Of a stretch of DNA of 35,441 nt, positions 21,570-34,289 are shown one piece after another (the stretch's first letter is position 1; every line of letters starts with the position of its first letter). The DNA lies in NCBI GenBank assembly GCA_003576845.1, contig QEVJ01000056.1:1-35441 (forward strand). The letters run 5' to 3'. The notes below the pieces were generated by a model. The model had not been told where the DNA came from. It saw only the letters and a program-made list of their open reading frames with translations, and ran no database searches. Made by a program: the position numbers and the translations under genes. The DNA comes from Planctomycetota bacterium (GTDB lineage Bacteria; Planctomycetota; Planctomycetia; Pirellulales; PLA5).

Positions 21570-21669
21570 GGAAGTGCTTGTACGCCTGGTGGCGGCCGCG
21601 GTCTTCAAAACCGTCGTGCGGTGCGTTAAGCGCGTCGCAGGTGGGTTCGATTCCCATGCACTTCCGCCA
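21570..21669 (+). tRNA. selC: tRNA-Sec (anticodon UCA)
   Basis: The 8-bp acceptor stem GGAAGTGC (21570-21577) pairs perfectly with GCACTTCC (21658-21665), followed by G-CCA encoded in the DNA. The D arm is CGCC-TGGT-GGCG, with the tetraloop typical of bacterial tRNA-Sec. The anticodon loop CTTCAAA carries TCA at 21605-21607. The variable arm is very long (about 9 bp stem with a TTAA loop), and the T arm is GTGGG-TTCGATT-CCCAT. Eight acceptor plus five T-stem pairs give the 13-bp acceptor/T helix known for bacterial SelC. It reads UGA as selenocysteine, so this genome should encode SelA, SelB, SelD and at least one selenoprotein; none is in the window. A tyrosine integrase converges on its 3' end. 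Confidence 0.96.
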
Positions 21670-22930
21670 TTTTCTTTGCACCTGTTAGCGGGGTGTCGCA
21701 AAATTTCGCAGAAGTGGATACGACACAGACAGTTGCGCTTTGTTCGTTTGATTCGTTGCGATTTGGTGCGCACGCCCGCTGCGCCGCATTTTGTGCGCTC
21801 CGTGCGCCGCTTTCTGCGCCGCTTTGGATTGCCCGCTCGAAATCGCCGTCGGTCACGGTCCAATAGTGCTTCTGCGCGACGAGCGTGCTATGCCCTAACC
21901 ACGCCGCCGCAACGTGGGCAGGGTAATCTGCCGCTAACTCCGTCGCGCGGCTTGCGCGAAGGTTGTGCGTGATTCGCGGCCACGGTTTCAAGCCGGCGCG
22001 GCGGATGATCCGCTCCAGTTGCGTGCGCAGGTTGGCGTTCGGGTCGCGATAGCGCTCGATAACGAATTCGCTTCCGGGCGCGGCCGCGTCGAACACGGCT
22101 TCCAAGTATGGCCGCAACTCCGGGAACAGCGGGACGATCCGCGATTCGTGGCCCGCGTGCCGCGCCGTCTTGGGCGAGCGTACCGTGATTCGGTTGCGTT
22201 CCCAGTCGACATCGGCCCAGGCAAGCGCCAAGTGCTCCGAAGGGCAGCGTAGGCCGCCGTAGCGACTCATGGCGATGATTAGCCGCCATTCGGCATCGGG
22301 AGCCGCGTCCAGAATCTTTGCCGTTTCTTCGCGGGTCACGAAATACTGCCGCGCGGCGTTGCCCACGGGCGCGGATACCAGCTTGGCGAACGGGTTGACG
22401 GCGACCAACTCGCGGTCGACCGCTTGGGCGAAGAAATGCTTGGCAAATCCGCAATGCTTGCGCACCGATGCGTCCGCCATCTTCGCCGCCACGAGCGAAA
22501 GCCGCCAATCGGCTGCGTCGCCCCGCGTAATGTCGCCCAGCGGCTTGTCCGCGCCGAAGTGCCCCGACAATAGCCGCAACGTCTGCCGCCAGATTCGCCG
22601 AGTGTGCGGCGACACGTCGTTTCGGCGGGAAATGTAACCTTCGATGAACGCATTGAGGGTCGCCGACGGTTTCGGCTCCGGATCGGGAATCAGTCCGACG
22701 CGGGCCAGTTTCTTTGCCATCGGCGGTTCAAGGTCCATTACCCATTGGGCCAAGTTTGGCTCCATCGGCCGCTTGAAGTTCAACGATTCGAGCAATTGCT
22801 CCACTCGGCACTTCATGCCTTCCGCCGTGCGCTGCGAAACCTTGCCCAAGCGAAACTGCCGACGCTCGCCATCGGGAGCAACGAACAGAATCCGGCGAGT
22901 GCCGTTTTTCTCGCGTGCAATGCTTGCCAT
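21626..22930 (-). CDS. tyrosine-type site-specific integrase
   Basis: Encodes 434 residues. Catalyses integration and excision of the island. The core-binding domain is about residues 90-175 (LNAFIEGYISRRNDVSPHT with RRIWRQTLRLLSGHF). The catalytic domain shows Arg 228 in GLRCPSE, His 322 and Arg 325 in HNLR, His 347 in WLGHS, and the nucleophile Tyr 356 in KHYWTV. The N-terminal 60 residues (RRILFVAPDGERRQFRLGKVS) form the arm-binding strand-rich region. The last 15 or so residues (EVHGNRTHLRRA) are read antisense from the tRNA-Sec 3' half, so the protein tail is provided by the attachment site. Start ATG 22930 has AAAGGGAAG about eight bases upstream; the frame extends to 23104 but through the XRE gene. 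It is 14 bp downstream of the XRE gene. Confidence 0.95.
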   Translation of the reverse strand: MASIAREKNGTRRILFVAPDGERRQFRLGKVSQRTAEGMKCRVEQLLESLNFKRPMEPNLAQWVMDLEPPMAKKLARVGLIPDPEPKPSATLNAFIEGYISRRNDVSPHTRRIWRQTLRLLSGHFGADKPLGDITRGDAADWRLSLVAAKMADASVRKHCGFAKHFFAQAVDRELVAVNPFAKLVSAPVGNAARQYFVTREETAKILDAAPDAEWRLIIAMSRYGGLRCPSEHLALAWADVDWERNRITVRSPKTARHAGHESRIVPLFPELRPYLEAVFDAAAPGSEFVIERYRDPNANLRTQLERIIRRAGLKPWPRITHNLRASRATELAADYPAHVAAAWLGHSTLVAQKHYWTVTDGDFERAIQSGAESGARSAQNAAQRACAPNRNESNEQSATVCVVSTSAKFCDTPLTGAKKMAEVHGNRTHLRRA

Positions 22931-22944
22931 TGTCACTTCCCTTT

Positions 22945-23160
22945 CTATGTCGCCTTGCGGCCCAAATTGATCGTCAGGTGCAAGCACTCGCCCAACGCAT
23001 TCAAAGCTTCCATCGAAAGCCCGCGGTGCCCGTTGTAGAACTTTGCCAGGGCGCTTTCGTCGATGCCGGTTTCCTTCGCGATTTGGTATCGCGTCAGTCC
23101 GCAATCGTCGATTGCTTGCCGGAGTTGATCCGTCAGCTTGTTCGTTCGTTTCGTCGCCAT
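22945..23160 (-). CDS. XRE-family HTH transcriptional regulator (Cro/CI-like)
   Basis: Encodes 71 residues. A compact helix-turn-helix of the Cro/CI type: LRQAIDDCGLTRYQIAKET forms helices 1-2, and GIDESALAKFYNGHRGLSMEAL forms the recognition helix and helix 4. It is followed by LGECLHLTI and a basic tail. Likely represses or controls the integrase and/or the divergent or upstream element operon. The gene lies 14 bp before the integrase and probably shares its transcript. A good -35/-10 pair (23167-23195) sits directly upstream so that the predicted start of transcription falls at or next to the ATG, which would make the mRNA leaderless, as in phage lambda cI from PRM. Confidence 0.9.
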   Translation of the reverse strand: MATKRTNKLTDQLRQAIDDCGLTRYQIAKETGIDESALAKFYNGHRGLSMEALNALGECLHLTINLGRKAT

Positions 23161-23166
23161 GTTGGG

Positions 23167-23195
23167 ATACTAGTCGATGCTGGCCTTATTGTCCA
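23167..23195 (-). promoter_or_regulatory. sigma70-like promoter of the XRE regulator and integrase
   Basis: On the minus strand TGGACA (23195-23190), a 17-base spacer, and TAGTAT (23172-23167) match the -35 and -10 consensus. Only six bases separate the -10 box from the ATG at 23160. The -35 box overlaps the last codons of the TubC_N/zinc-ribbon gene. The spacer region holds a CTGG...CCAG inverted pair that could be an operator. Confidence 0.6.
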
Positions 23196-23542
23196 GTATT
23201 CTTGCCGTACCAAACCGGAAAGTCGATGAACCGCCCGCATCGCCCGCAGTCCCGCCGGATCGTTTGCCCGCCGTGGATTGGCACGTCACGCCATTTCGTC
23301 GAACCGCACCGGCAAACGGCCACCGTGGGCAACGCCGTCGCCTCTGCCGCCACAACGGGCAACACCGGACCATCGTCGGGCGTCCGTCGCAGGATCGCCA
23401 GCAACGCGGCCTTGTGCGTTTTGAGGCGGTCCAGCAAGTCCGGCGTCGCGGCCGAGCGCGGATGATAACGCAGCCGGTCGCCGTCGGCTTCCAAACGGAT
23501 GCCGAGCCGGTCCAAGTCGGCGAGTAGTTCCGCGGCGTTCAT
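23186..23542 (-). CDS. TubC_N-like domain plus zinc-ribbon protein
   Basis: Encodes 118 residues. Residues 1-50 (MNAAELLADLDRLGIRLEA, GDRLRYHP, PDLLDRLKTHKAALLAIL) closely resemble the TubC_N docking domain, a small helix-strand module best known at NRPS/PKS subunit termini. Residues about 76-110 form a zinc ribbon: CRCGSTKWRDVPIHGG then DCGRCGRFIDF, with two Cys pairs. The ATG overlaps the primase stop in an ATGA, so the two proteins are translationally coupled and probably work together, for example as a loading or specificity factor. That role is inference. The pairing of a TubC_N-like module with a replication-type gene is known to me only as a recurring arrangement in islands; its function is not established. 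Confidence 0.8.
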   Translation of the reverse strand: MNAAELLADLDRLGIRLEADGDRLRYHPRSAATPDLLDRLKTHKAALLAILRRTPDDGPVLPVVAAEATALPTVAVCRCGSTKWRDVPIHGGQTIRRDCGRCGRFIDFPVWYGKNTGQ

Positions 23543-25956
23543 ACGTCACCCCATTCGTCACCGGGGCCGTCAGACTCCGCGTCACCTTCGCCGTCAACGT
23601 CAACGGTATTCGTCGGACCGCCGAGTGATTGGCCGTTACCGTTGACCGCGGACGAAGTTGACAGCCGAAAACGCCGCGTCGGCTGCCCGCGTTGGCCCGC
23701 CGGCGACGGTTCCCACGCTCCGCGGCCAGCCTTCGCCAATTCGTTCAACTCGGCTTCTGCCGCTCCGGGTTCCCTCAGCCATCGGCAACCCATTTGCACC
23801 TCGCGGGCCGTGACCGCAGCGCCCTTGCGCCCGATCCATTCGACAAGCCGCCGCCGCTCGCGGTCTTCATCGCTTTCGCCCAGCATCGCGTAGACGCGAC
23901 GGGCTTCTCCCTTGAACCACGTCGTCAGGCGAACGCCCGCGGCCATGCTCGCGGCGTCAACCACGTCAGGCGATTCCAACGTAGGGTCGTCCGCGGCCCA
24001 ACGAACGCAATGAATCACGAGCGCGAACCGCGGTGCGTATTCTTCCAACTTCGACCACGCGGCGGACAAGTCGCCGGTCGATTCCGCTTGCTCCTGCCCG
24101 TGGACGTTGTAGAACCGTTTCCAAATCGCTTTGGCGTCGGCCGACAACGTGACAATCACGGGCCGCGGTTCGTCGTCATCGTCCATCGCCGGTTGCAGTT
24201 CATACAGACGATCAACCAGCCGGGCGATTTCCACTTCGGCGCTTGGGTCAATGTCGGCTTCGGTCCACCGCTTTGCGATTCGAGGCGGGCAGGACAGCAG
24301 CAGCCGCGCCGCCAAGCCCGACTCCCGATGCTCCATTCCCAGCGCACGATGCAAGATCGCCGGTTGAATGCCGCCGCAGACGCACACCGATGCTTGCGGG
24401 ACGAAGATTGTCCGCGGGTTCCCGGTTTTCCGGTCGACGATGATGCTTTCGCCGTTGTGCATCGAAAGCCAATGGGCCGCGTCCGCACCGCCCTTCCCGC
24501 CGGAATACCTGTCGAACGAGCCGAGCCAGCCCGCAAGTTCATCGCGGGCCATCAACAACCCCCGCGGATTCGACAACAGCAGCGGGGCCAGGGCTTCGAC
24601 GGTCGTGTCGGACACGATCCAGCGCTCGGCTTGTGGAGGTTGCGGCTTCGCGGGCGGGTCTTCGATTGTTTTCTTGTCCCGCTTCCATTCGGCCACCGCC
24701 TTTTCCCACCGCGCCAAGTCGACTTCGTAAAGGTCCGTCGCCGCGGCGTTTCGCTCCAGCGCCTTCCGCTGTCGTTCCCGAACCGGCTTCATAACCAACT
24801 TGAACGCGGGCGTTTTCGCCGTGCCGCTCTCGCCGACAATCGCGGCCCAAAGAATCGCGGGAGCGGTCCAGCCGCGCTTGAGTTGAATCCGGCGCGTGTT
24901 GCCGATGGCGGACGCAATCGCCGTCAGCATCGGCAACGCGAGGTACGACGGATCGCAGCCAATCGCCTTCGCGCCCGCTCGCACGAAGCCTTGCGCCGGT
25001 TCGGGCAGCGAATCGACGGGGAACGGCACGAAAACACCGACTACTTCAGTTGCTTTTTGCGAATTCAATTGTTCGGCTTCATTTGCCAGCGCATCGACGA
25101 TTCGCCGCAGTTCATCCGTCGCGGTGCCTTCGTTGGCTTCGACGAAATCCGCAGCGTCGCCTTTGTCGGGCAGTCCGGGCAGTTCCACGACTTTGACGAC
25201 CGGAGCGGGCGTCAGCTTCGCCAGAATGCCCGCTACGGCGTCCGCGTACTTGCGGCCAGGTGGATCGTTGTCGGGCAACAGAATCACTTCCTTGCCCGCC
25301 AGGGGTCGCCAGTCGGTCTTGTCGGGGGACTCGCAACCATGCGCCGAAGTGGTCGCCGTCAGACCGATGGCCTTCGCCGCGTCGGCCGCCTTCTCGCCTT
25401 CGCAAACGTAGACCCGTTCGGCCTTCGCTAACGCGGGCAGTCCATACAATGGCCGCGGTGTCGGCATCGCCGTAATTTGCCAGCCGTCGCCCTCGCGACT
25501 CGCCGGGCGAATGTCTTTCTTGCCGTTCGGCCGATCCCAACGCACGACAACGCCCACCGGTTCGCCGTTGGCGTCGCGATACGTCCACAGTGCCGCCCGC
25601 GGACCGTGCCGCCGTTCCAACTCGGCTACGGCGTCGCGAGCCAATGCGAACACCTTGCCCGGCGATTGGCCGCTGTCGCGTCCACGGTTTTGCCGTTTTT
25701 CTCGACTCGGGCGCAATACTGTTGACGTTGACGCTGCGAATAGGTCCGCGGGACGCATTCCAACCGCCGCGCAAACGGCGTCGACATTGCATCCCGCGTG
25801 ACAGAAAACCAACACCCGCCCGTCATCGCCTTCCGATATGCTCAAACTCGCCCGCCCGTCATCGTGCGCCGGGCACTTCGCCGTCCAGCCATTCCCCGTG
25901 CGGCGAACGCCTTGCAGCTTGGAAAGCAGCGCCTGCAAATTGCCGTTTGTGTCCAT
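23539..25956 (-). CDS. island primase: zinc finger, Toprim and DUF3987 domains
   Basis: Encodes 805 residues. Residues about 24-60 form a CHC2-like zinc finger (CPAHDDGRAS with C28/H31, and FCHAGC with C52/C56). Residues about 180-250 are a Toprim domain: VYVCEGEKAADAAKA with Glu 186 and LLPDNDPPG with Asp 229/Asp 231. From about 315 to 620 there is a DUF3987 module with a P-loop-like GESGTAKT (375-382), FVPQASVCVCGGIQP and SGLAARLLLSCPP. The C-terminal part is helix-rich (EWIGRKGAAVTAREVQMGCRWL), looking like a winged helix. Zinc finger plus Toprim indicates primer synthesis for element replication; DUF3987 is ATPase-like and could be the helicase part. The start ATG at 25956 lies after a hairpin and repeat region. 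Its stop overlaps the TubC_N gene start. Confidence 0.88.
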   Translation of the reverse strand: MDTNGNLQALLSKLQGVRRTGNGWTAKCPAHDDGRASLSISEGDDGRVLVFCHAGCNVDAVCAAVGMRPADLFAASTSTVLRPSREKRQNRGRDSGQSPGKVFALARDAVAELERRHGPRAALWTYRDANGEPVGVVVRWDRPNGKKDIRPASREGDGWQITAMPTPRPLYGLPALAKAERVYVCEGEKAADAAKAIGLTATTSAHGCESPDKTDWRPLAGKEVILLPDNDPPGRKYADAVAGILAKLTPAPVVKVVELPGLPDKGDAADFVEANEGTATDELRRIVDALANEAEQLNSQKATEVVGVFVPFPVDSLPEPAQGFVRAGAKAIGCDPSYLALPMLTAIASAIGNTRRIQLKRGWTAPAILWAAIVGESGTAKTPAFKLVMKPVRERQRKALERNAAATDLYEVDLARWEKAVAEWKRDKKTIEDPPAKPQPPQAERWIVSDTTVEALAPLLLSNPRGLLMARDELAGWLGSFDRYSGGKGGADAAHWLSMHNGESIIVDRKTGNPRTIFVPQASVCVCGGIQPAILHRALGMEHRESGLAARLLLSCPPRIAKRWTEADIDPSAEVEIARLVDRLYELQPAMDDDDEPRPVIVTLSADAKAIWKRFYNVHGQEQAESTGDLSAAWSKLEEYAPRFALVIHCVRWAADDPTLESPDVVDAASMAAGVRLTTWFKGEARRVYAMLGESDEDRERRRLVEWIGRKGAAVTAREVQMGCRWLREPGAAEAELNELAKAGRGAWEPSPAGQRGQPTRRFRLSTSSAVNGNGQSLGGPTNTVDVDGEGDAESDGPGDEWGDV

Positions 25957-25972: not shown

Positions 25973-26080
25973 TTGGATTCACAAGTCCACGTTTGCGAAG
26001 CGCCCGGCCCCAACGCCGGGCGTTTCGGTTAATGGACTGACCGGGAATCGAACCCGGCGCGTTGGATTCACAAGTCCACG
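25973..26080. repeat. 19-bp direct repeats flanking a hairpin and a tRNA T-arm
   Basis: TTGGATTCACAAGTCCACG occurs at 25973-25991 and 26062-26080, identical over 19 bp and 89 bp apart. On the minus strand each copy reads as an anticodon-arm-like hairpin (TGGA-CTTGTGAA-TCCA). The second copy is part of the tRNA-like sequence; the first stands alone just ahead of the primase ATG. They may be remnants of a duplicated or recombined attachment core. Confidence 0.7.
25997..26026. promoter_or_regulatory. strong hairpin between the tRNA-like sequence and the primase
   Basis: GAAGCGCCCGGC (25997-26008) and GCCGGGCGTTTC (26015-26026) pair over 12 bp with one G-T wobble around a 6-base loop. It sits 41 bp upstream of the primase start on the transcript from the excisionase side and could be a terminator, attenuator or structured replication signal. 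There is no long T-run on the minus strand. Confidence 0.6.
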
Positions 26081-26101
26081 CTGGCGACCACGCCCCAGCC
26101 C
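26033..26101 (-). tRNA. tRNA-like sequence, possibly a degenerate tRNA-His (GTG)
   Basis: On the minus strand a perfect T arm CCGGG-TTCGATT-CCCGG is followed by TCAGTCC-A. GGGCTGG at 26101-26095 can pair with TCAGTCC allowing two wobbles, giving a 7-bp acceptor stem. The anticodon arm is TGGA with loop CTTGTGAA and TCCA, that is an 8-base loop on a 4-bp stem, with GTG (26069-26071 on the plus strand as CAC) in the anticodon position. The D arm is short (3 bp). Total 69 bases and no encoded CCA. The T arm is convincing but the D and anticodon arms are abnormal, so it may be a defective element tRNA, a tRNA mimic or an att-site remnant. Confidence 0.4.
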
Positions 26102-26136
26102 ACCGCGCTACAAAGCGCTTGGGGGTCGGGGGCGGC

Positions 26137-26355
26137 CTACGTCGACACGTCAACGCCGTGGGCCTTCCGACTGAGCCACGCTTGAAGGTCCGCCACGGGG
26201 TATAGAACCGACCGCCGCTTGCCGTTGCCGACGCGGACGCACGGCACAACGCCATCGTGCGTCAGTTGCCAAAGCAGCCGGGGAGAGATACCCAACGCCT
26301 TCGCCGCCTCACGGGGCCGAAGGGCCAGGGGATGTTGCACGCTTGCCGAAGCCAT
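26137..26355 (-). CDS. excisionase-like MerR/HTH_17 DNA-binding protein
   Basis: Encodes 72 residues. A winged helix-turn-helix of the AlpA/Xis (HTH_17) type: ALRPREAAKALGISPRLLWQLT (helices 1-2 and recognition helix), GVVPCVRVGNGKRRSVLYPV (wing with the basic loop) and the final helix DLQAWLSRKA. Such small proteins bend DNA at attachment sites to favour excision or act as operon regulators. Start ATG 26355 has GGAG about nine bases upstream; the frame reaches 26514 but that extension crosses the repeat cluster and looks non-coding. It is separated from the integrase by four kilobases, unlike classical int-xis pairs, and sits next to the repeat cluster at 26416-26527, which it or the large protein upstream could bind. 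Confidence 0.85.
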   Translation of the reverse strand: MASASVQHPLALRPREAAKALGISPRLLWQLTHDGVVPCVRVGNGKRRSVLYPVADLQAWLSRKAHGVDVST

Positions 26356-26527
26356 CGTCGCAAACTCCAACAGGTCGCCCGCCGCGAAGTGCGGCTTGCA
26401 TACCCGTTGGCGCAGCGTTGGGCGAAAAGATACCCAACGGTTGGTGAATCGCGAGGAATCGCCGAGAAATGCCAGGGTCGGCACGGCAAAGAAAAGACTT
26501 CGGGCGTTGGGCAAGCGATGCCCAACG
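26287..26527. repeat. GATRCCCAACG repeat cluster, iteron- or operator-like
   Basis: GATACCCAACG occurs at 26287-26297 (inside the HTH gene) and 26429-26439, and GATGCCCAACG at 26517-26527, all in the same orientation. Inverted copies CGTTGGG at 26416-26422 and CGTTGGGC at 26505-26512 face the latter two, forming two similar hairpins (7 and 8 bp arms) about 89 bp apart. The intergenic part lies between the large HTH-ended protein and the excisionase-like gene. The first copy encodes the conserved ALGIS turn of the HTH, so it may be coincidental. Confidence 0.55.
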
Positions 26528-26544
26528 ATCCAACGCGCGGTCGA

Positions 26545-28821
26545 TTATTCGTTGTCGCGGTCGTCTTCGTCAGCCGGCCTTTTGCCGTAAAGAAGATGGG
26601 GCGCGAATTCTCCATTTAGCAGCTTCAATGCTGCGGCCAATTGCGCCGCGTCTGCGCAAGCCGCCTTGTACTTTCCGTGACCCTTGAATTGCTGTTTGAA
26701 GAATGACGATGCAGTCGCTTGGTCAACTTCTGCCAGCCGGGCCAACTCGTTGTTGCCGATAGGTTCCAAGTTCAAGCAACCGCCGCCGGCGTACTTGTGG
26801 TGCTTCGTCAGGGCAGCAATCAACTTCGCTCTGCCTTCGCCCCGCTCCGTGCTACGCTTGGCCTTCCGCGGCGTGGGACTATCACCAAGGTCGGCCACTG
26901 GCTCGGCTTCACTTGCCGCCGAAGCTGCGGCTCGCACGTTGCGGTTGAAATCGCGTATCAACTTTAACTTGTTCCTACGATTCCAAGTTTCTGATTCGCC
27001 CAACGGACTGGCGCGCCTTTCACGTTGAATTGCCGACGCCGAAATGGGCTGTCCCAAGTACGCTTCCAGTAGCGCCAACTCGCGGTCCGATAGTTCGGCA
27101 TCGTTCGGCCCGGCCAGCAGCCCCTCGATAAGGTCGCCTTCGCCGGCCTTTACCGAGTTCAAGTTGCCATCGCCCCTGCTGCCGGTCGCCGCCGCCACGA
27201 ATTCCGCAAGCGGCATGTTGATGACACTTGCCCAGTCCGAATCCGTTTGCAGTTCAACGCGGGCGATAAGTTTCTTCATGGTCGATGCTTCGTCCCCGCC
27301 TTCGGCTCGGATCAACGCCATCGCGCGTCCAAGCGATCGCCGCTTGGTTTCGTCGGCGCTTTCGGGAAACGTAACGATGGGCGTATTCGCGCCGCGGCGA
27401 GATGAAATGCTCGAAGTCGTGACGCACGGCTGCCGGCCTTCCGATAGCGCCTTCCACAAGTCGCCGGCCGTGTTCACAATTGCAACCTTGCTAGCCAACG
27501 CGCCGACGCGGGCACGCTCCCAGGCATCGCGCAAGGCGTTGACCGCCGGTGTCAAAAGCCCGTCGATTTGTTCCACCGTGCCCGCGGTCAACTCGCGGCG
27601 CAGCACATCGCCCGCGATTGCCTTCGCTTCGTCCGGCAAGTCCACCAGCGCCGCCAGTCGTGCGCCAGCTTCGGCCCAGTAGATACCGCGAACCATGCTT
27701 TCGATGGTCGCGTTCGGATACCCGCGTTCAAGTTGCTGTCGCTTCGCTTCGGCCGCGTAGCGAACTTCGTCGCGGACGATTTCCAGAAAAGCAACGTGCC
27801 CGGCCGGCGTTGCCGGAAACCGATCCAAGAGCGAAAAGGCCGGCTTCGCCGCTGCCCGCCGGGCGTCATCGACGAACGCGAAAGGATCGTCCCGCCGCCG
27901 CGCTTTGGAAACTTGCTTCACCGCTTCCCAGCCGTCGTGGAAAACCGTTTTCAGTTCTACCGCAGCGTCCAGATGATCCGTGAATCCACCGTCGCGGCCC
28001 AGCTTATTCCGAATCTCCTTGGCGATGCCAGCCGCTTGCAACAACCGGTCAGCCACGGGAGCGAATCCATCGGGTGCATTCTGCATCGCATCGCGCAGGT
28101 CTAACAGCGCCGCGCAGAACGCATCGAACGCCGGGGCGTGCTTTTGCCAAAGCGACAGGTCGTAGAAAACCGCCCGCGATTGGCCTTGCTCGTTGAACGC
28201 TTCGGCTAGTTCACGGGCCAGGGAAAAGACGTTGCCGGCCCGGTCCAAGAGTGTTTCGAGCGAACGCCCGCCCAGGGTCGGATTCTCGTTTGTCGCGGTC
28301 GCCGTCGATGCGCATTCGTCAATGCGGACAGCGCTCGCCGTCGAAAGATGAAGGTCCAGCGATTTCGACGCCGATTTGAGAAGGCTTAGCGATTCGCCCG
28401 AAATCACGTCGCCCCTGAACCAGCGCTGCTTTTGATGCTGCTTGGCGGCGGGCAACGCAACGACTTCGCGAGCCTTTTCGAGTGCGGCCAACAGCCGTGG
28501 CACACCCGTGCTTGGAATCCGTCCGACCCGCACGCTTTCCGCGCCGATGGGCTTCGACGATCCGTCGGTCGACTTGGCTTGAAGCAGCGTCACGCCTTTC
28601 GGCAATTCGCTCAGCACTTCGCCGATGGAAGCGAACAGGTATAGATATGCGAACCCGATGGCGTTTGTTAGCGCCGCTGTCGATTCCGAAAGCGCCTCGG
28701 CATCGTGAATGCCGATGACTTCCCAACCGCCATCGACTTGCCGGGTTGCGGCGTCGAAGTCCGCGAAGAATCGGTCGAATGCAGCGCGAAGCGCCGACAG
28801 AACGCCCGTGGCGTCGCCCAT
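26545..28821 (-). CDS. large island protein of unknown function with C-terminal HTH-like domain
   Basis: Encodes 758 residues. No known domain recognised over most of its length. Residues 1-250 contain WEVIGIHDAEALSESTAAL, LPKGVTLLQAKSTDGSSK and RVGRIPSTGVPRLLAALEKAREVV. The middle is Ala/Arg-rich and helical, with many DxRR-type segments. Residues about 640-670 are basic (RRNKLKLIRDFNRN, PRKAKRSTERGEGRAKL). The C-terminal 86 residues look like a DNA-binding module: GGGCLNLEPIGNNELARLA, VDQATASSFFKQQFKGHGKY, LLNGEFAPHLLYGK, with the predicted HTH at about 690-712. Its size and basic HTH end, next to a repeat cluster and a primase, suggest a replication or partition protein or transcription factor; this is inference. 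ATG at 28821; AGGTG about four bases upstream falls in one arm of an inverted repeat. No signal peptide or membrane helix. Confidence 0.8.
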   Translation of the reverse strand: MGDATGVLSALRAAFDRFFADFDAATRQVDGGWEVIGIHDAEALSESTAALTNAIGFAYLYLFASIGEVLSELPKGVTLLQAKSTDGSSKPIGAESVRVGRIPSTGVPRLLAALEKAREVVALPAAKQHQKQRWFRGDVISGESLSLLKSASKSLDLHLSTASAVRIDECASTATATNENPTLGGRSLETLLDRAGNVFSLARELAEAFNEQGQSRAVFYDLSLWQKHAPAFDAFCAALLDLRDAMQNAPDGFAPVADRLLQAAGIAKEIRNKLGRDGGFTDHLDAAVELKTVFHDGWEAVKQVSKARRRDDPFAFVDDARRAAAKPAFSLLDRFPATPAGHVAFLEIVRDEVRYAAEAKRQQLERGYPNATIESMVRGIYWAEAGARLAALVDLPDEAKAIAGDVLRRELTAGTVEQIDGLLTPAVNALRDAWERARVGALASKVAIVNTAGDLWKALSEGRQPCVTTSSISSRRGANTPIVTFPESADETKRRSLGRAMALIRAEGGDEASTMKKLIARVELQTDSDWASVINMPLAEFVAAATGSRGDGNLNSVKAGEGDLIEGLLAGPNDAELSDRELALLEAYLGQPISASAIQRERRASPLGESETWNRRNKLKLIRDFNRNVRAAASAASEAEPVADLGDSPTPRKAKRSTERGEGRAKLIAALTKHHKYAGGGCLNLEPIGNNELARLAEVDQATASSFFKQQFKGHGKYKAACADAAQLAAALKLLNGEFAPHLLYGKRPADEDDRDNE

Positions 28822-29530: not shown

Positions 29531-29914
29531 CTATGGCGCGTCGGCGTCGGGACTTCCGTCAGCATGAAGCGCCCGCACCTTCGCCACGATTTCGGCGAGT
29601 TGTTCCGGGGGCACGATACCGCCAACTTGCTGAATGTCGCCCAGCGCGACTTCCGCGAGCCAACTACAAACGGCAAACGTCGGCTTCCTCAGTTTCGTGC
29701 GCGTCTGGCCGGATGGATGCCACGGCAGCGCCACTTGATCCGCCGGCATCGGCAAATCGTCGCGCGTCGTACAAACGACAACGGCGAGCGGTTCGTCGGG
29801 CCGTTCCGCGGGCGGAGTCCCCAAGACGACAGCCGGGCGCGGCATCGGCTTCGCGTAGCCGTTTGGATCGGCAATGACGGCCCAAATCAGCCTTCCAGGC
29901 TCCGGGGTCGACAC
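29531..29914 (-). CDS. PemK/MazF-like toxin
   Basis: Encodes 127 residues. The fold signature of PemK/MazF (CcdB-like) endoribonucleases is visible: GRLIWAVIADPNGYAKPMPRPAVVLG matches the N-terminal 'GDIWWxxxPxxGxExxGxRPxVVL' strand pair, AVVVCTT is the next strand, and KPTFAVCSWLAEVALGDI then IVPPEQLAEIVAKVRAL fit the C-terminal 'sxvxxxQlrtvdxxrl' and last helix. Such toxins cleave mRNA at short sequences. The start is GTG at 29914, with GGGGAG about ten bases upstream. The 109-residue gene lies 21 bp upstream, the typical antitoxin position. Whether it is active cannot be told from sequence alone. Confidence 0.75.
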   Translation of the reverse strand: MSTPEPGRLIWAVIADPNGYAKPMPRPAVVLGTPPAERPDEPLAVVVCTTRDDLPMPADQVALPWHPSGQTRTKLRKPTFAVCSWLAEVALGDIQQVGGIVPPEQLAEIVAKVRALHADGSPDADAP

Positions 29915-29935
29915 GCCGCAACTCCCCGCCGCGAG

Positions 29936-30265
29936 TTAGAACGGGTTTTCTTCCGCCCGGTCGCCGTCCAGATACTTCGGCGGGCCGCTCCGCTTCGCCA
30001 TTTCGCGCAGCTCGTCATACGACGGTAGGTCTGCCGCCGCGTCCCGCGGCCGATTGCGGTTCGGACGCTTCATGGTACGGCGGTCGGGAATCAGTTGTCC
30101 GGCCAACACCGCGAGCGCGTCGTCAGCTACTTTTTCCGCCCGAAGTTCGCCGGTCGTCACGGAGCGTGTTTCGGCCGACTCGTCAAACGGCAATGGTTCG
30201 GCGCACTCCGGTTCCACGGCTCGCGTCTCGGCAAATGTACCGTGGTCTGTCGCAATTCCGCTCAT
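29936..30265 (-). CDS. possible antitoxin to the PemK-like protein
   Basis: Encodes 109 residues, rich in Glu, Asp and Arg and probably partly disordered. The central part (ELRAEKVADDALAVLAGQLI, PDRRTMKRPNRNRPRD) and the C-terminus (LPSYDELREMAKRSGPPKYL, DGDRAEENPF) resemble toxin-wrapping antitoxin tails in composition only; no known DNA-binding fold (AbrB, RHH, Phd) is clear. Assigned by position: 21 bp upstream of the toxin and three bases after the DUF6941 gene. Alternative: an unrelated island protein. ATG at 30265. Confidence 0.5.
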   Translation of the reverse strand: MSGIATDHGTFAETRAVEPECAEPLPFDESAETRSVTTGELRAEKVADDALAVLAGQLIPDRRTMKRPNRNRPRDAAADLPSYDELREMAKRSGPPKYLDGDRAEENPF

Positions 30266-30268
30266 AGG

Positions 30269-30706
30269 TTACTCGTTGCCTTCGCTTGTGCCGTCGCCAT
30301 CGTGACGACGGGCATCGGTCAAGCGCAGTCGTCGCGCCATTAAGTGTTCGTCGCCCGAATACAGTTCGCAGTGATAAACGCCCGGCTTGGGCAATTCGAT
30401 TTTCGCCAGAATACAGAACCCTTCGACAGTCGTCAGTGGGTCCGGAAACTCCAAGTCGGGCAAATGGATCGTCTTATCGAACGTGTCCGTTTCCGCAATG
30501 TCGCCGGAAGATTCCGCGATGCGTAGTCTAAGCGGGACGCGGCCAACCCCATCGGTAAACGCGAAGTAAATGCAAAAGCCCGCGCAGCAGGGAAACTCAC
30601 TGGCGTTGATGTTGTTGAACGTCCCCAGGATCGTAAACTTGCCCGTCGTTCGGTCGCGGTGGACGGCATCGCAAATCACCATCGCCAAGCAATACGGGGT
30701 TGCCAT
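30269..30706 (-). CDS. DUF6941 family protein
   Basis: Encodes 145 residues. Matches the DUF6941 pattern as I know it: LAMVICDAVHRDRTTGKFTILGTFNNINASEFP at the start, FTDGVGRVPLRLRI, DPLTTVEGFCILAKIELPKPGVYHCELYSGDEHLMARRL. A beta-sandwich-like cytoplasmic protein of unknown role; homologues are typically free-standing genes in many bacteria. It starts the four-gene run that leads into the antitoxin-like and toxin genes (stop to next ATG three bases). The ATG at 30706 has GAAGG upstream. The leader contains a hairpin followed by a T-run at 30740-30779. Confidence 0.8.
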   Translation of the reverse strand: MATPYCLAMVICDAVHRDRTTGKFTILGTFNNINASEFPCCAGFCIYFAFTDGVGRVPLRLRIAESSGDIAETDTFDKTIHLPDLEFPDPLTTVEGFCILAKIELPKPGVYHCELYSGDEHLMARRLRLTDARRHDGDGTSEGNE

Positions 30707-30739
30707 CCGGTGGGCCTTCGCACGCTAGCAAGAGGGCGC

Positions 30740-30779
30740 AAAAACAAACCCGCCAACCGACCGAACGTCAAAAGGCGGG
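30740..30779 (-). terminator. hairpin with T-run in the leader of the DUF6941 gene
   Basis: On the minus strand CCCGCC (30779-30774) pairs with GGCGGG (30754-30749) across a 19-base loop and is followed by TTTGTTTTT (30748-30740). It lies 34 bases before the DUF6941 ATG and so may be a second terminator for the restriction operon or an attenuator for the genes downstream. Confidence 0.5.
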
Positions 30780-30860
30780 CATCCGTTCACTCACGACCGC
30801 GGCCGCAGGGCCGCCGCAACTCGCATCCATCCAAGCCTATCCTACACAAACAATATCGGC

Positions 30861-30893
30861 AAAAACAACCTTCCGGCGGGGGCTTTCTCCGCC
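30861..30893 (-). terminator. terminator-like hairpin after the restriction operon
   Basis: On the minus strand GGCGG (30893-30889) pairs with CCGCC (30879-30875), followed by GGAAGGTTGTTTTT. It is the first hairpin with a T-run downstream of the metallopeptidase stop at 31030, 137 bp away, and may end the hsd transcript. A weak TTGTTT/TAGGAT pair overlapping it could be the DUF6941 promoter. Confidence 0.45.
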
Positions 30894-31029
30894 AAACCCG
30901 ACCGGCCGGGCACTCGTTTTAGCGTCCCCCGCGGCCCACCGCAACGCGGCTTTTACGCCACTTTGGAAGGCCGCCTTTCCCCAAGACGCCGGAAATCAAG
31001 CCGCCGGAACAAGTTGCGGGACAACGCCG

Positions 31030-31404
31030 TCAAACTGCCGCCGTCCCCGCCGCCCGCGAAAGCCCCAATCCCGCCTCTCCCCGTCGGTTTCGCGGGGCCA
31101 CGGTTCGCCAATTCGGCACGAAGGCCGCCAGCAGCGCCTTGAATAGCTTGCCGTGGTTCGGCACGTGCAAATGCAGCAGTTCGTGGACAATCACGTATTC
31201 CTGCCACTCGTGCAATTCGCCGAGCAAGTCGGCGCTAAACGTAACGCGGCCCGTGCTGGAACAGCTTGCCCATTTGGTCGTCATCGTGCGGACGTGGATT
31301 TCCTTCGGCCGCACGCCAATCCGCTCCGCCCAAGCCCGCACGCGCTGCTTGAATGCGTAAACGTCGGTCCGTCGCTTCGGTCGCCGTCGTAGCGTGGTCG
31401 TCAT
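31030..31404 (-). CDS. YgjP/SprT-like (M48-type) metallopeptidase coupled to hsdR
   Basis: Encodes 124 residues. Contains the zinc-metallopeptidase motif HELLHLHVPNHGKLFKALL at about residues 75-93, and the preceding RTMTTKWASCSSTGRVTFSADL typical of the YgjP-like DUF45 family. The N-terminus is basic (MTTTLRRRPKRR). Its ATG overlaps the hsdR stop in ATGA, so translation is coupled. Such peptidases are frequently encoded directly after type I restriction subunits; their role there is not settled, perhaps proteolytic control of the restriction complex. The C-terminal tail is Gly/Ala-rich and weakly conserved. Confidence 0.85.
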   Translation of the reverse strand: MTTTLRRRPKRRTDVYAFKQRVRAWAERIGVRPKEIHVRTMTTKWASCSSTGRVTFSADLLGELHEWQEYVIVHELLHLHVPNHGKLFKALLAAFVPNWRTVAPRNRRGEAGLGLSRAAGTAAV

Positions 31405-34289
31405 CCTTCGTGCCTTTCCATAGCCAGCAAGCTGTCGATAGCCGCGGAAACCCGATCCTTGCCAAGCGGCTTCAACAGGGCCACCGTCAGCCGCAACCGC
31501 AGTTGCCGCATATTCTCCGGGTTCACGTCGCGGGAGGGATGCTCGGCGATGATACGGTCGACTTCCGTCGCCAGTGCCGGATCGTCGCGGCCGCAATCCT
31601 GTTTCAATCGCCAATAGACCGGGAACGTGGTCGACCGGTCAAACCCCATCGCCGTCTCTTGTTTCTTCGCTTCGGTGTACTCGCGGACGAATTCTTCCAT
31701 CGCCTCTAGCGCGGTCTTCGTGTCAATCTGCCGTTCGTCGTAGCGCTGGACCAACTCTTCGACGCGCTCGCCAATCGTTCGCAAGTGCGGCTTCTCGCCC
31801 GCCTCTTCCGACACCGTGACGACCAGACTTTTCGCCAGATTGATGACCTTCGCTTCGTCGGGCGTCTTGCCCTTGTGGAGCGCTTCCAGCGTCTTCTCGT
31901 TGATTTCGTACCGCTTGACCGCCCCCGTGGGATCGTCGGCCCGCACGTGCTGTTGCACGAGCGCTTGCGTTTTGCGGAGCAATTCGCGGTCCAACATCGG
32001 CCGCATCGAAAACATTGCCCGCACGACCGCGTACAGCCGGGCCAGCTTGCCGTAATCGTCGATGAAGTCCCGCAGAAACGCATCGGGCGAAATGATTTCA
32101 TACATCCGTTCCAAATCCTTGAATCGGTTGTAGAAACTCAATCGCCGCTCGCGGTCGGTAAACGCGGCGACCGCGGCTTCGACAGCTTTATCGTCGCCGC
32201 CCTTGGCCAGCGTCAGGAACTCGCCGCACAACTCGCCCAGCCGCACCTTGAACGTCGCTTTGAGCAAGTCGATATTCTCGATGACCGATTGCACTTCGGC
32301 CGAATCGAACGCCAGCGCCTTTTGCAGATTGTCGAAGATGCCCACGAAGTCCAGCACGTAGCCCGCCGGCTTCACCCGGCCATCGTCGGCTTCGTAGGGC
32401 CGATTGACGCGGGCGATGGCCTGCAAAAGCACGTGGTCGCGCATCGGCTTGTCGAGATACATGCAATAGAGCACGGGCGCATCGTAGCCCGTCAGCAGCT
32501 TTTCGGTGACGATCAAGATTTGCGGATCGGTGTCCGGCTTGGCGAACGCCTTGCGGATGGCCTTTTCGTCTTTCGATTCCAGCTTGTACCGCTTCAAGTC
32601 CGCGCCGTCGTTGTGGGCCGACGTGTAGACGACGCGGCTCCACTCCGCCGGCAAATAGCGGTCCAGCGCTTCCTTGTAAAGTGCGCACGCTTGCCGATCC
32701 ACGCCCACGAGAAACGCCTTGAAGCCAAGCGGTTGAATCTTCGCGCGGAAATGCTCCGCCACGAATCGCGCAATCGCGTCGACCCGCTCGCGGTTTTTCA
32801 TCGCGGTTTTCAGCGTCACGGCCCGGTCAAGGATCGCGTTCAATTCGTCGATGTCGCTCACGCCCTGCGCTTCGGCCAGGGCAAGAAACTCCGTTTCGAG
32901 CAATTCGCGGTCCACCTTTAATTCGTTCGGCGCTAGTTCGTAATGCAGCCGCAACGTCGTGCCGTCGGCCACGCTCTCGGCAATCGAATACTTGTCGAGA
33001 TAGCCCTTATCATCGTCGACGCCGAAAGTCTTGAACGTCCCTTTGCCGTGGGCCGTCTTGTCGATTGGCGTCCCCGTAAAGCCGATCCACGTCGCATTGG
33101 GCAGCGCGCCGAGCAAGTAATTTCCCAAGTCGCCGCCCGTGCTGCGGTGAGCTTCGTCGATGAGCACGAAGATATCTTCCCGCGTATTCAAGTCTTTCGG
33201 GATGCCCTCGAATTTGTGGATCATCGACACGATCAACCCGCAGTAGTCGCTTGCCAGCAAGTCTTGCACGTCGCGTTTGCTCTCCGCCACGCGGTGCGCC
33301 ACGCCGACGCCGGCCAGATTGCCGAAGAGTTGCGTTTCGAGTTCGTTGCGGTCCACCAGCATCAGCACCGTCGGCTTGCCGAATTGCTCGCGTTCCAACA
33401 GCATTCGCGCCGCGGTAATCATGGTGAACGTCTTGCCCGATCCTTGCGTATGCCAGACCAGCGCCCGGCGTCGCTTGGAATCGGCACAGCGGGCGACCAC
33501 CTTATCGACGGCCCGCGTTTGATGCTGCCGCAGCACGTATTTTTTCAGGTCGTCATCCTTCGCGGCGAACACGATGAAGTCGGCGAGAAACCGCAGGATT
33601 CGCTCCGGATCGCAAAACGCCTTGATTGCCGCTTCATAGTCGCCCGTTTCGTCGGTCCGCCAGCGAAACAGGTTTTTGCGCTCCAGCGACCACGTGACGC
33701 CGTACCACAGTTGCCGCAGTTCCGACACGTCGAACAATTGCAGCGCCGCCATCATTTCCGGCGTTTCGCGGTGGTAGCGGCGGATTTGGTCGATGCCCTG
33801 CGCGATCGCGTCTTGCTTGTGGGCCGCCTTCGTTTCGGCGACCAGCACGGGCAGACCGTTGACGAGAAACACCACGTCGTAGCGGTTGTGTTCCTTGCCG
33901 TTCGTATACCGCCATTCGTGCGTCACCTCAAACTCGTTGGCCACTCTATCGTCGAAGTCGATAAGCCGAACGTTGATTTCTCGTTTCTGCCCATCGTGAT
34001 ACACGCTCCGCTCGCCGCGCAGCCAGGCGAGCATCTCGCGGTTTCCTTCAACCCTTGCGGGCAGGTTTTGCAACTTGCGGAGCACTTCGGCCGCGTGAAC
34101 GCCGTTTAGACCGGCCGCCTTGTTCAGCTTGCAGAATTGTTCCGTGAGCCGCTGAACGAACACGATACCCGTTTCGCCGCCGCGGCGCTTGAGGGCTTCG
34201 GCTTTGTCTACGGGCGTCCAGCCGATTTCCCGCGCGTACCGCAGCATCGGCAGTTGCACCGCGGGAACTTCTGCGCCCAAGTTAGGCAT
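31401..34289 (-). CDS. hsdR: type I restriction endonuclease subunit R
   Basis: Encodes 962 residues. Cuts and translocates unmodified DNA as part of the HsdR-HsdM-HsdS complex. The N-terminal nuclease domain has NRYDVVFLVNGLPVLVAETK (PD-x-ExK type; Asp 138, Glu 152, Lys 154) with a conserved Gln downstream (QGIDQIRRY). The superfamily 2 motor has Walker A TQGSGKT (281-287), LVDRNELETQ, DEAH (378-381), GFTGTP, and in the second domain FLVG, VVYTSA, ILIVTEKLLTGYDAP and QAIARVNRP. The length is normal for HsdR. Its ATG overlaps the hsdS stop by 8 bp, and its own stop overlaps the metallopeptidase start. hsdM is not in the window and is expected to the right of hsdS. Confidence 0.95.
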   Translation of the reverse strand: MPNLGAEVPAVQLPMLRYAREIGWTPVDKAEALKRRGGETGIVFVQRLTEQFCKLNKAAGLNGVHAAEVLRKLQNLPARVEGNREMLAWLRGERSVYHDGQKREINVRLIDFDDRVANEFEVTHEWRYTNGKEHNRYDVVFLVNGLPVLVAETKAAHKQDAIAQGIDQIRRYHRETPEMMAALQLFDVSELRQLWYGVTWSLERKNLFRWRTDETGDYEAAIKAFCDPERILRFLADFIVFAAKDDDLKKYVLRQHQTRAVDKVVARCADSKRRRALVWHTQGSGKTFTMITAARMLLEREQFGKPTVLMLVDRNELETQLFGNLAGVGVAHRVAESKRDVQDLLASDYCGLIVSMIHKFEGIPKDLNTREDIFVLIDEAHRSTGGDLGNYLLGALPNATWIGFTGTPIDKTAHGKGTFKTFGVDDDKGYLDKYSIAESVADGTTLRLHYELAPNELKVDRELLETEFLALAEAQGVSDIDELNAILDRAVTLKTAMKNRERVDAIARFVAEHFRAKIQPLGFKAFLVGVDRQACALYKEALDRYLPAEWSRVVYTSAHNDGADLKRYKLESKDEKAIRKAFAKPDTDPQILIVTEKLLTGYDAPVLYCMYLDKPMRDHVLLQAIARVNRPYEADDGRVKPAGYVLDFVGIFDNLQKALAFDSAEVQSVIENIDLLKATFKVRLGELCGEFLTLAKGGDDKAVEAAVAAFTDRERRLSFYNRFKDLERMYEIISPDAFLRDFIDDYGKLARLYAVVRAMFSMRPMLDRELLRKTQALVQQHVRADDPTGAVKRYEINEKTLEALHKGKTPDEAKVINLAKSLVVTVSEEAGEKPHLRTIGERVEELVQRYDERQIDTKTALEAMEEFVREYTEAKKQETAMGFDRSTTFPVYWRLKQDCGRDDPALATEVDRIIAEHPSRDVNPENMRQLRLRLTVALLKPLGKDRVSAAIDSLLAMERHEG

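What the first reader, a model, noticed from the sequence alone, without database searches (positions are those of the whole stretch)
26287..26527. Iteron- or operator-like GATRCCCAACG repeats beside primase and HTH genes
Three same-direction copies of an 11-bp motif and two inverted core copies form a pair of matching hairpins spaced about 89 bp apart in the gap between an HTH-ended 758-residue protein and an excisionase-like protein. This is the layout of a plasmid-type origin or of a self-regulated operator.
Basis: partly seen in the sequence, partly recalled or inferred. Interest (0 to 1): 0.55.

Follow-up and report, generated by a model that had tools for sequence, protein, structure and literature searches.

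The report
Matched regulator tail and operator pair
The repeats are most likely the paired DNA landing sites of the gene next door, and across planctomycete mobile islands the landing-site letters and the protein residues predicted to read them change together, like matched locks and keys.

Summary
The repeats are real and their layout is conserved, but the third direct copy (26287-26297) is only the HTH_17 gene's ALGIS codons. What matters is two 21-22 bp palindromes, P1 (26506-26526) and P2 (26417-26438), plus a tandem half-site (26527-26534), between a 758-aa protein ("ORF-C") and an AlpA/HTH_17 excisionase-like gene. ORF-C matched no Pfam, NCBIfam or PHROG family; its C-terminal domain (CTD) recurs in other planctomycete elements. 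In 38 curated loci the layout stays while the half-site GTTxx changes (GG, CG, CC, CA), mostly the same within a locus (36 of 38 for P1, 34 of 38 for P2). xx follows residues at the start of the CTD's predicted recognition helix (D for GG, S for CG, G for CA), not AlpA residues. Spacing is mostly 86-89.5 bp, else mainly about one helical turn shorter or longer. In two pairs of co-resident sibling elements CTD and palindromes diverge together from similar upstream DNA. Best reading: operators of a modular, immunity-type regulator controlling alpA-primase-integrase in islands with the PICMI gene core, here next to tRNA-Sec. A replication origin with ORF-C as initiator is the main rival. Binding, regulation and replication were not tested.

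The parts
26545..28821 (-). ORF-C, 758 aa, mosaic N-terminal part plus conserved C-terminal domain
   Evidence: translation; no match in Pfam, PHROGs (E up to 0.1) or NCBIfam (E up to 0.01); relatives
26545..26937 (-). ORF-C C-terminal domain (CTD), HTH-like
   Evidence: alignments A1, A3; AlphaFold2 block pLDDT 85-96 over residues 31-110 of 130, helix 73-84 as second HTH helix; weak HTH family hits in other members
26713..26724 (-). codons D700-Q701-A702-T703, start of the predicted recognition helix; 700, 702 and 703 (CTD columns 72, 74, 75) covary with the half-site
26527..26534 (-). half-site H1, GTTGGATC, tandem to P1
26506..26526 (.). palindrome P1 (minus strand GTTGGGCATCGCTTGCCCAAC), 21 bp
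26417..26438 (.). palindrome P2 (minus strand GTTGGGTATCTTTTCGCCCAAC), 22 bp, centre 88.5 bp from P1
26398..26405 (-). GGGTATGC box downstream of P2, -10-like (function inferred)
   Evidence: GGTA-type box 11 or 12 nt after P2 in 26 of 38 loci (no shuffle control); consensus
26381..26395 (-). leader hairpin GCCGC-ACTTC-GCGGC before the AlpA gene
   Evidence: 36 of 38 loci have a hairpin of at least 5 bp (G-U allowed) in the 70 nt after P2, 20 distinct 5' stems; no shuffle control was run
26137..26355 (-). AlpA-like HTH_17 protein, 72 aa (excisionase/regulator)
   Evidence: HTH_17 E 9.6e-9; PHROG 66 excisionase 3.6e-6; AlpA-like ORF within 900 nt downstream of ORF-C in 44 of 52 rows
23539..25956 (-). 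DUF3987 primase-helicase
   Evidence: E 7.5e-77; PHROG primase/helicase
23186..23542 (-). TubC_N-domain small protein
   Evidence: E 6.4e-13
22945..23160 (-). Cro/C1-type HTH protein, 71 aa
   Evidence: HTH_3 5e-6
21626..23104 (-). tyrosine integrase
   Evidence: E 3.9e-12
21570..21669 (+). tRNA-Sec overlapped by the end of the integrase ORF; presumed insertion site
   Evidence: same arrangement at other tRNA/tmRNA genes
26287..26297 (+). third GATACCCAACG copy: codons of ALGIS in HTH_17, not a site

Best explanation
The palindromes are the operators of the neighbouring 758-residue protein. Its C-terminal HTH domain binds the half-site GTTGG as a dimer on each palindrome. The two sites lie 88.5 bp apart, so that two bound dimers can meet across a short DNA loop, and P2 sits where the -35 region of the alpA promoter should be. 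The protein thereby holds (most likely represses) the alpA-primase-integrase operon of an integrated island; the exchangeable N-terminal part would sense the inducing signal. CTD and operators form one specificity cassette, so co-resident islands do not cross-regulate, as in phage immunity groups. Supported by tool results: conservation and layout, co-change of half-site and recognition-helix residues, joint divergence of CTD and sites in sibling elements, gene order, integrase ends at tRNA/tmRNA genes. Inferred: dimer binding, looping, promoter position, repression rather than activation, sensing, cross-talk avoidance.
For: Layout H1-P1-P2 recurs while the letters change: 38 curated rows of 52. 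xx of H1 equals that of P1 in 36 of 38 and of P2 in 34 of 38. Covariation controlled for overall CTD identity: column 74 partial r 0.58, column 72 0.42, column 75 0.30; 0 of 300 label permutations reach 0.58, their maximum is 0.35. D at 72 in 10 of 10 GG loci and 0 of 28 others; G at 74 in 5 of 5 CA loci and 0 of 33 others; S at 74 in 15 of 17 CG loci. Control: AlpA columns, verified frames, 35 loci: max 0.215, reached by 22 of 300 permutations; CTD on the same loci 0.548, 0 of 300. These residues sit at the start of the predicted recognition helix. Spacing in the 38: 86-89.5 bp in 28, 97-100 in 7, 76.5 in 2, 81.5 in 1. Siblings in one genome, L006/L018: 82-100% alike over the 500 bp before the CTD region, 24-84% over CTD and P1-P2, then 98-100% over the AlpA leader and gene; L005/L019: 94-98% over the 150 bp ending just before the recognition helix, then 50-78%. 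GGTA box 11-12 nt after P2 in 26 of 38. The replication genes after AlpA vary, also between siblings with 78% alike ORF-C N-termini: L005 has DUF3987, L019 a DnaB-type protein; this fits a regulator better than a specific helicase loader.
Against: No binding, expression or replication data. ORF-C and alpA are co-directional, so read-through could bypass the operators; no terminator was shown. The -10-like box is a poor sigma-70 match and its recurrence had no shuffle control. The fold comparison is generic (best VIA Z 7.0 to a CRP-family protein, no Foldseek E below 0.001). The first 20 nt or so after P1 are 19-23 points richer in A+T than the locus mean, which an origin would also show. 14 of 52 rows are outside the curated set: 11 without a pair by the rule, 3 dropped. 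Label permutation ignores descent, some loci are near copies in this region (L061/L063), tree support is low and independent pairs on starred branches are few (1, 3 and 2). CC loci have no single residue (R, R, S, A, A, A). L005/L019 do not return to high identity after P2. Within genomes 1 of 10 element pairs shares xx, not significant by my hand estimate.
Confidence: 0.62

Rival explanations
1. Replication origin: P1 and P2 are iteron clusters flanking a T-rich stretch; ORF-C is the initiator whose CTD binds them and loads the element's primase-helicase. Changing iteron specificity would set incompatibility groups.
For: Sites lie directly 3' of ORF-C and 5' of replication genes; tandem half-site H1; T-rich TTTTCTT tract and A+T excess after P1; satellite origins with repeat-binding initiators exist (PLE RepA, PMC7145576, passages). 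The CTD/half-site covariation supports it equally.
Against: ORF-C proteins match no helicase, primase or Rep family at the thresholds used; siblings with 78% alike N-termini carry different replication genes; the A+T excess is confined to about 25 nt; P2 has a near-fixed distance to a GGTA box before alpA in 26 of 38 loci; fold neighbours are mostly transcription regulators.
Confidence: 0.25
2. The palindromes act as RNA hairpins (terminator or processing signal) in the ORF-C/alpA transcript.
For: Arms stay complementary while changing, and P1 lies just after the stop codon.
Against: Two palindromes and a tandem half-site carry the same letters in most loci, and these follow HTH residues; spacing clusters about a helical turn apart; no T-run directly follows the stems (by eye).
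Confidence: 0.05
3. The AlpA-like HTH_17 protein, not ORF-C, is the reader of P1/P2, and ORF-C covaries only by linkage.
For: AlpA-type proteins are DNA-binding and the gene lies directly downstream.
Against: AlpA columns do not track the half-site (max partial r 0.215, 22 of 300 permutations as high); L006 and L018 have nearly identical AlpA DNA but different half-sites.
Confidence: 0.04

Closest known systems
PICMI satellites of Vibrionaceae (PMC10803314; passages read)
   Same: Core genes int + AlpA (PF12728 or PF05930) + primase (DUF3987/DUF5906); integrated island; there alpA expression is described as necessary and sufficient for activation, and how the helper phage activates the early regulon is named as an open question.
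   Different: Planctomycetota host, integrase next to tRNA/tmRNA genes instead of fis, an upstream ORF-C with paired sites, varied replication genes, no shown helper phage.
SaPI Stl master repressor (PMC6695447; passages read)
   Same: DNA-binding domain coupled to partner-recognition parts; Stl described as modular and Stl proteins as highly divergent; control of excision and replication.
   Different: Stl has its HTH at the N-terminus, ORF-C at the C-terminus; no direct sequence comparison was made; the inducer of ORF-C, if any, is unknown.
Immunity repressor and operator/stoperator systems of Cluster A mycobacteriophages (PMC6550527; passages read)
   Same: Repressor and binding-site motif diverge together and underlie immunity specificities.
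   Different: 20-30 sites per genome and no cooperative binding there; here two palindromic sites before one gene.
PLE RepA_N initiator and iterons (PMC7145576; passages read)
   Same: Satellite-coded protein reading repeats with inverted sub-repeats at an origin.
   Different: RepA_N family with N-terminal DNA-binding domain; ORF-C has no such family match.

Membership tests
PICMI-like element | integrase, AlpA (PF12728/PF05930) and primase (DUF3987 or DUF5906) together | tested here: met
   PF00589, PF12728 and PF13148 within 4.8 kb
PICMI-like element | insertion at fis (required in the Vibrionaceae model, optional in the broader one) | tested here: inconclusive
   integrase ORF ends in tRNA-Sec, which points to another site; fis was not searched and the far end of the island was not located; so it is not filed as a PICMI
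PICMI-like element | induction and packaging by a helper phage | not testable with these tools
   no phage data; one relative lies in an IMG/VR contig (L065), weak
[quoted passage not shown]
   the HTH-like domain is C-terminal; works-like claim kept, membership not claimed
Stl/Rpr-type PICI repressor | derepression by direct binding of an inducer protein | not testable with these tools
   none
Iteron plasmid/satellite origin with Rep initiator | Rep-family initiator (Pfam/NCBIfam/PHROGs) | tested here: not met
   none among the families listed for 48 ORF-C proteins (E up to 0.05, 0.01, 0.01)
Iteron plasmid/satellite origin with Rep initiator | autonomous replication from the fragment | not testable with these tools
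   none
Operator of a dimeric HTH regulator | palindromic sites whose letters follow recognition-helix residues | tested here: met
   (association, not binding)
Operator of a dimeric HTH regulator | site overlaps a promoter of the controlled gene | tested here: inconclusive
   GGTA box at near-fixed distance in 26 of 38, but not a clear -10

The most novel reading that the evidence does not exclude
A family of planctomycete islands carries a plug-in immunity cassette: an HTH tail and its own operator pair that are exchanged as one unit between co-resident islands, fused to ever-changing N-terminal parts that act as sensors for different triggers. Its DNA specificity can largely be read from two residues (D700 with A702: GTTGG; S702: GTTCG; G702: GTTCA; R702: one way to GTTCC).
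Probability: 0.35. Interest if true: 0.8.

Novelty: new variant of a known kind. Interest (0 to 1): 0.66.

Why it matters
It gives a testable recognition code for an unannotated DNA-binding family, a candidate for what controls alpA in islands with the PICMI gene core (activation of the early regulon is named as open in PMC10803314, passages), and a natural set of about 40 matched protein/site pairs with switches of specificity, some between sibling elements in one genome. It suggests that integrative elements of Planctomycetota may fall into immunity or incompatibility groups. In the held library I found no paper on it: 'planctomycetota' with 'phage satellite' gave 0 papers; planctomycetes/integrative/duf3987/alpa, at least 3 of 4, gave 5 papers, 4 listed, of which the PICMI paper is the only related one by its listing; alpa/operator/repressor/satellite/primase/early operon, at least 5 of 6, gave 0. 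No wider search was made.

Tried and rejected
Iteron array of three GATRCCCAACG: rejected, one copy is codons. RNA hairpins: disfavoured (see rivals). Dispersed repeat: the palindrome pattern occurs at only two places in the genome, both here, with a backwards control of equal count. ORF-C autoregulation at its own promoter: no other GTTGG-N8-14-CCAAC in the window. Repeat of the tRNA-Sec end elsewhere in the window as a second att site: only three 13-mer matches, one of them the generic T-arm; the far end of the island is not located. Domain identity of the N-terminus: AlphaFold2 on the whole protein gave pLDDT 52.6, not used. PDB sequence search with the CTD profile: no hit at E up to 1. PDB fold search: generic HTH regulators, no Foldseek E below 0.001. 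Co-resident elements avoiding the same xx: G043 has four elements with four xx (GG, CG, CC, CA; the CG one, L012, read by eye), G037 GG/CG/CG, G046 CC/CA; 1 of 10 pairs alike against about 0.29 per pair expected by hand from the 38 loci, not significant. First AlpA control (max 0.148, 106 of 300) held some wrong-frame rows and was redone with profile-verified ORFs. Own-genome second ORF-C (L015, contig C21): no pair found by the script and no AlpA-like ORF; left out. An earlier count gave rougher identities for the sibling pairs than the report; the report follows.

Rows dropped before counts: of 52 ORF-C rows, 41 passed the pair rule; L037 and L048 (doubtful pairs) and the second row of the broken L038 were dropped, leaving 38. 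Rows without a pair by that rule: L012, L058, L015, L064, L031, L035, L041, L008, L014, L049, L067. L012, L058 and L064 hold a CG-type H1-P1 by eye (L012 and L058 fail the rule only on two outer letters) and, with L084 and L089 found later, these 5 fit CG (residue 74 S, S, S, S, D). L035, L086, L088, L092, L093, L094 have other half-sites (GTCACC, GTTTCA, GTCCCA, GTCCAC, GTTTCC, GTTTCA), read by eye; pairs were found by script in L035 and in L086, L088 and L093. Of the 13 non-duplicate loci, L085, L087, L090, L091, L095 and L096 gave no convincing pair, L092 and L094 only a partial one. Pair choice used P1/P2 similarity, so the 34 of 38 P2 agreement is partly selected for; H1 was not used in the choice.

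Full report
What was claimed and what is there. The window is one whole contig of a 7.05-Mb genome. The 14 relatives with named records all carry planctomycete titles. On the minus strand the order is ORF-C (758 aa, 26545-28821), a 189-bp gap, an AlpA-like HTH_17 gene (26137-26355), a DUF3987 primase-helicase (23539-25956), small TubC_N and Cro-type proteins, and a tyrosine integrase whose ORF ends inside tRNA-Sec. The three 11-mers and two inverted cores are present, but the copy at 26287 is codons of ALGIS in HTH_17. The gap holds two palindromes with the same GTTGGG outer arms and a tandem half-site: reading with the genes, GTTGGATC-GTTGGGCATCGCTTGCCCAAC, then 67 bp, then GTTGGGTATCTTTTCGCCCAAC.

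Relatives. The window's ORF-C matches no Pfam, PHROG or NCBIfam family at the thresholds used; among 48 relatives there are only weak hits, mostly to HTH families (LacI in 7 of 48, best E 0.0023). Its last 120 residues are conserved: matches in 9 of 57 relatives searched, 38 of 396 genomes of the order, 3 of 392 spread over the phylum, 17 of 241 and 6 of 43 in two families; these sets overlap and include the window's own genome in the first three. Further: 14 loci in the named genome collection and one contig of the viral collection. The N-terminal parts are mosaic: BLAST finds shared segments only in small groups.

Layout. Downstream of 52 ORF-C rows (51 loci), 29 have two palindromes 80-110 bp apart sharing at least 6 of 7 arm letters, against 0.4% of shuffles. 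With a rule that demands GTT and AAC ends with at most one deviation, 41 rows pass, 38 after dropping two doubtful rows and one duplicate row. Centre spacing in the 38 is 86-89.5 bp in 28, 97-100 in 7, 76.5 in 2 and 81.5 in 1: apart from the last, steps of about one helical turn, which fits two proteins meeting on one DNA face. Most of the 88-bp cases may share it by descent. An AlpA-like ORF follows within 900 nt in 44 of 52.

The letters change together. The dinucleotide xx in GTTxx of H1 is GG, CG, CC or CA (10, 17, 6 and 5 loci). H1 and P1 agree in 36 of 38, H1 and P2 in 34 of 38. More distant members use other half-sites in a similar arrangement, and some show no clear pair.

Who reads them. 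For each protein column I asked whether sharing a residue predicts sharing xx, beyond overall CTD similarity. Columns 74, 72 and 75 of the CTD stand out (partial r 0.58, 0.42, 0.30; median over columns -0.01; 0 of 300 permutations reach 0.58). The predicted structure puts them at the start of the second HTH helix, residues 73-84. D72 marks GG (10 of 10), G74 marks CA (5 of 5), S74 marks CG (15 of 17), CC is mixed. AlpA columns show nothing comparable (max 0.215, 22 of 300 permutations as high, 35 loci). Five further CG-type loci not used in the test agree (S, S, S, S, D; D at 74 was already seen in one CG locus). On a tree built without these columns xx needs at the fewest 12 changes and residue 74 also 12, but most forks are weak and independent pairs on well-supported branches are few (1 GG/D72, 3 CG/S74, 2 CA/G74; over random pairings b goes the same way in 1.0, 2.7 and 2.0 of them and hardly ever the other way). 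From memory, the equivalent positions of the LacI recognition helix also set operator preference; this is recall, not a test.

A cassette. In one genome L006 and L018 are siblings: over the 500 bp before the CTD region they are 82-100% alike, over CTD and P1-P2 24-84% (50-bp windows, mostly 50-70%), and from just after P2 through the AlpA gene 98-100%. L005 and L019, siblings in another genome, are 94-98% alike over the 150 bp that end at the codon before the recognition helix (78-96% further upstream, apart from one poor window), then 50-78% through P2 and the AlpA gene, without a full return. So protein tail and sites diverged or were replaced together between co-resident elements; only the first pair shows both borders.

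What it controls. A GGTA-type box lies 11 or 12 nt after P2 in 26 of 38 loci and is followed by a small hairpin and the AlpA start. P2 would then cover the -35 region. The genes after AlpA vary: DUF3987 with different primase parts, AAA_25, DnaB-type, Prim-Pol, ParB_N. L005 and L019, whose ORF-C N-termini are 78% alike, carry DUF3987 and a DnaB-type protein, respectively. I therefore prefer a transcription regulator of the operon over an initiator that loads a specific helicase; this is inference.

What the element is. Of 19 distinct long loci with at least 4 kb downstream of ORF-C, the window included, 15 have an integrase of the window's type there. By comparing by hand, 11 of these 15 integrase ORFs end in, or within 10 bp of, a tRNA or tmRNA gene (SeC, Met four times, tmRNA twice, Ser, Glu, Val, Lys); for the other four ARAGORN reports none in the stretch held. 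These look like integrative islands with the int-AlpA-DUF3987 core of PICMI satellites (PMC10803314, passages), but at other sites; no helper phage is known. Near the window's ORF-C are type I restriction genes, probable cargo.

Limits. Nothing here shows binding, repression, looping or replication. An origin remains possible at about one in four.

Noticed in passing
window 26033-26102 (minus), with direct repeat 26063-26080 / 25974-25991: A tRNA-like stretch with a perfect T-arm between AlpA and the primase gene, followed by a GC hairpin and a second copy of its anticodon-arm stretch just before the primase start. The same arrangement is in L020/L072, L016/L076 and L036, and next to AlpA-like ORFs (by eye) in L103 (own genome, C208) and L100, contigs where the ORF-C searches gave no match. 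The four folded copies each give a cloverleaf as best structure, with an 8-nt anticodon loop in 3 of 4 (z -2.5, -1.2, -1.6, -2.1). ARAGORN does not call the window copy; Rfam gives only a sub-threshold tRNA-Sec match, E 0.12. A model built from the four finds only those four strongly in 73 sources, and L103, L100 and three weaker matches besides in 57 genomes. Unexplained: att site, tRNA mimic or leader switch.
   Followed up: partly
window 21570-21669 and 21626-23104: tRNA-Sec overlapped by the integrase ORF end; in related islands the integrase ORF likewise ends at tRNA-Met, Glu, Val, Lys, Ser or tmRNA genes.
   Followed up: partly
window 29531-35238: Probable cargo: HsdS- and HsdR-like genes, YgjP-like peptidase, DUF6941, and a PemK-like toxin match below its curated cut-off.
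   Followed up: no
L063 and L061, end of ORF-C to AlpA leader: Loci of two different records share a nearly identical stretch from the last ~18 codons of the CTD to the AlpA leader while the CTD before it is about 75% alike: another recombination joint.
   Followed up: no
window 26381-26395 and relatives: Small hairpin in the AlpA leader whose stem changes between loci with pairing kept, e.g. GCCGC/GCGGC, GCCACG/CGTGGC, GACCAC/GTGGTC (no shuffle control); possibly an AlpA site or a translation control.
   Followed up: no
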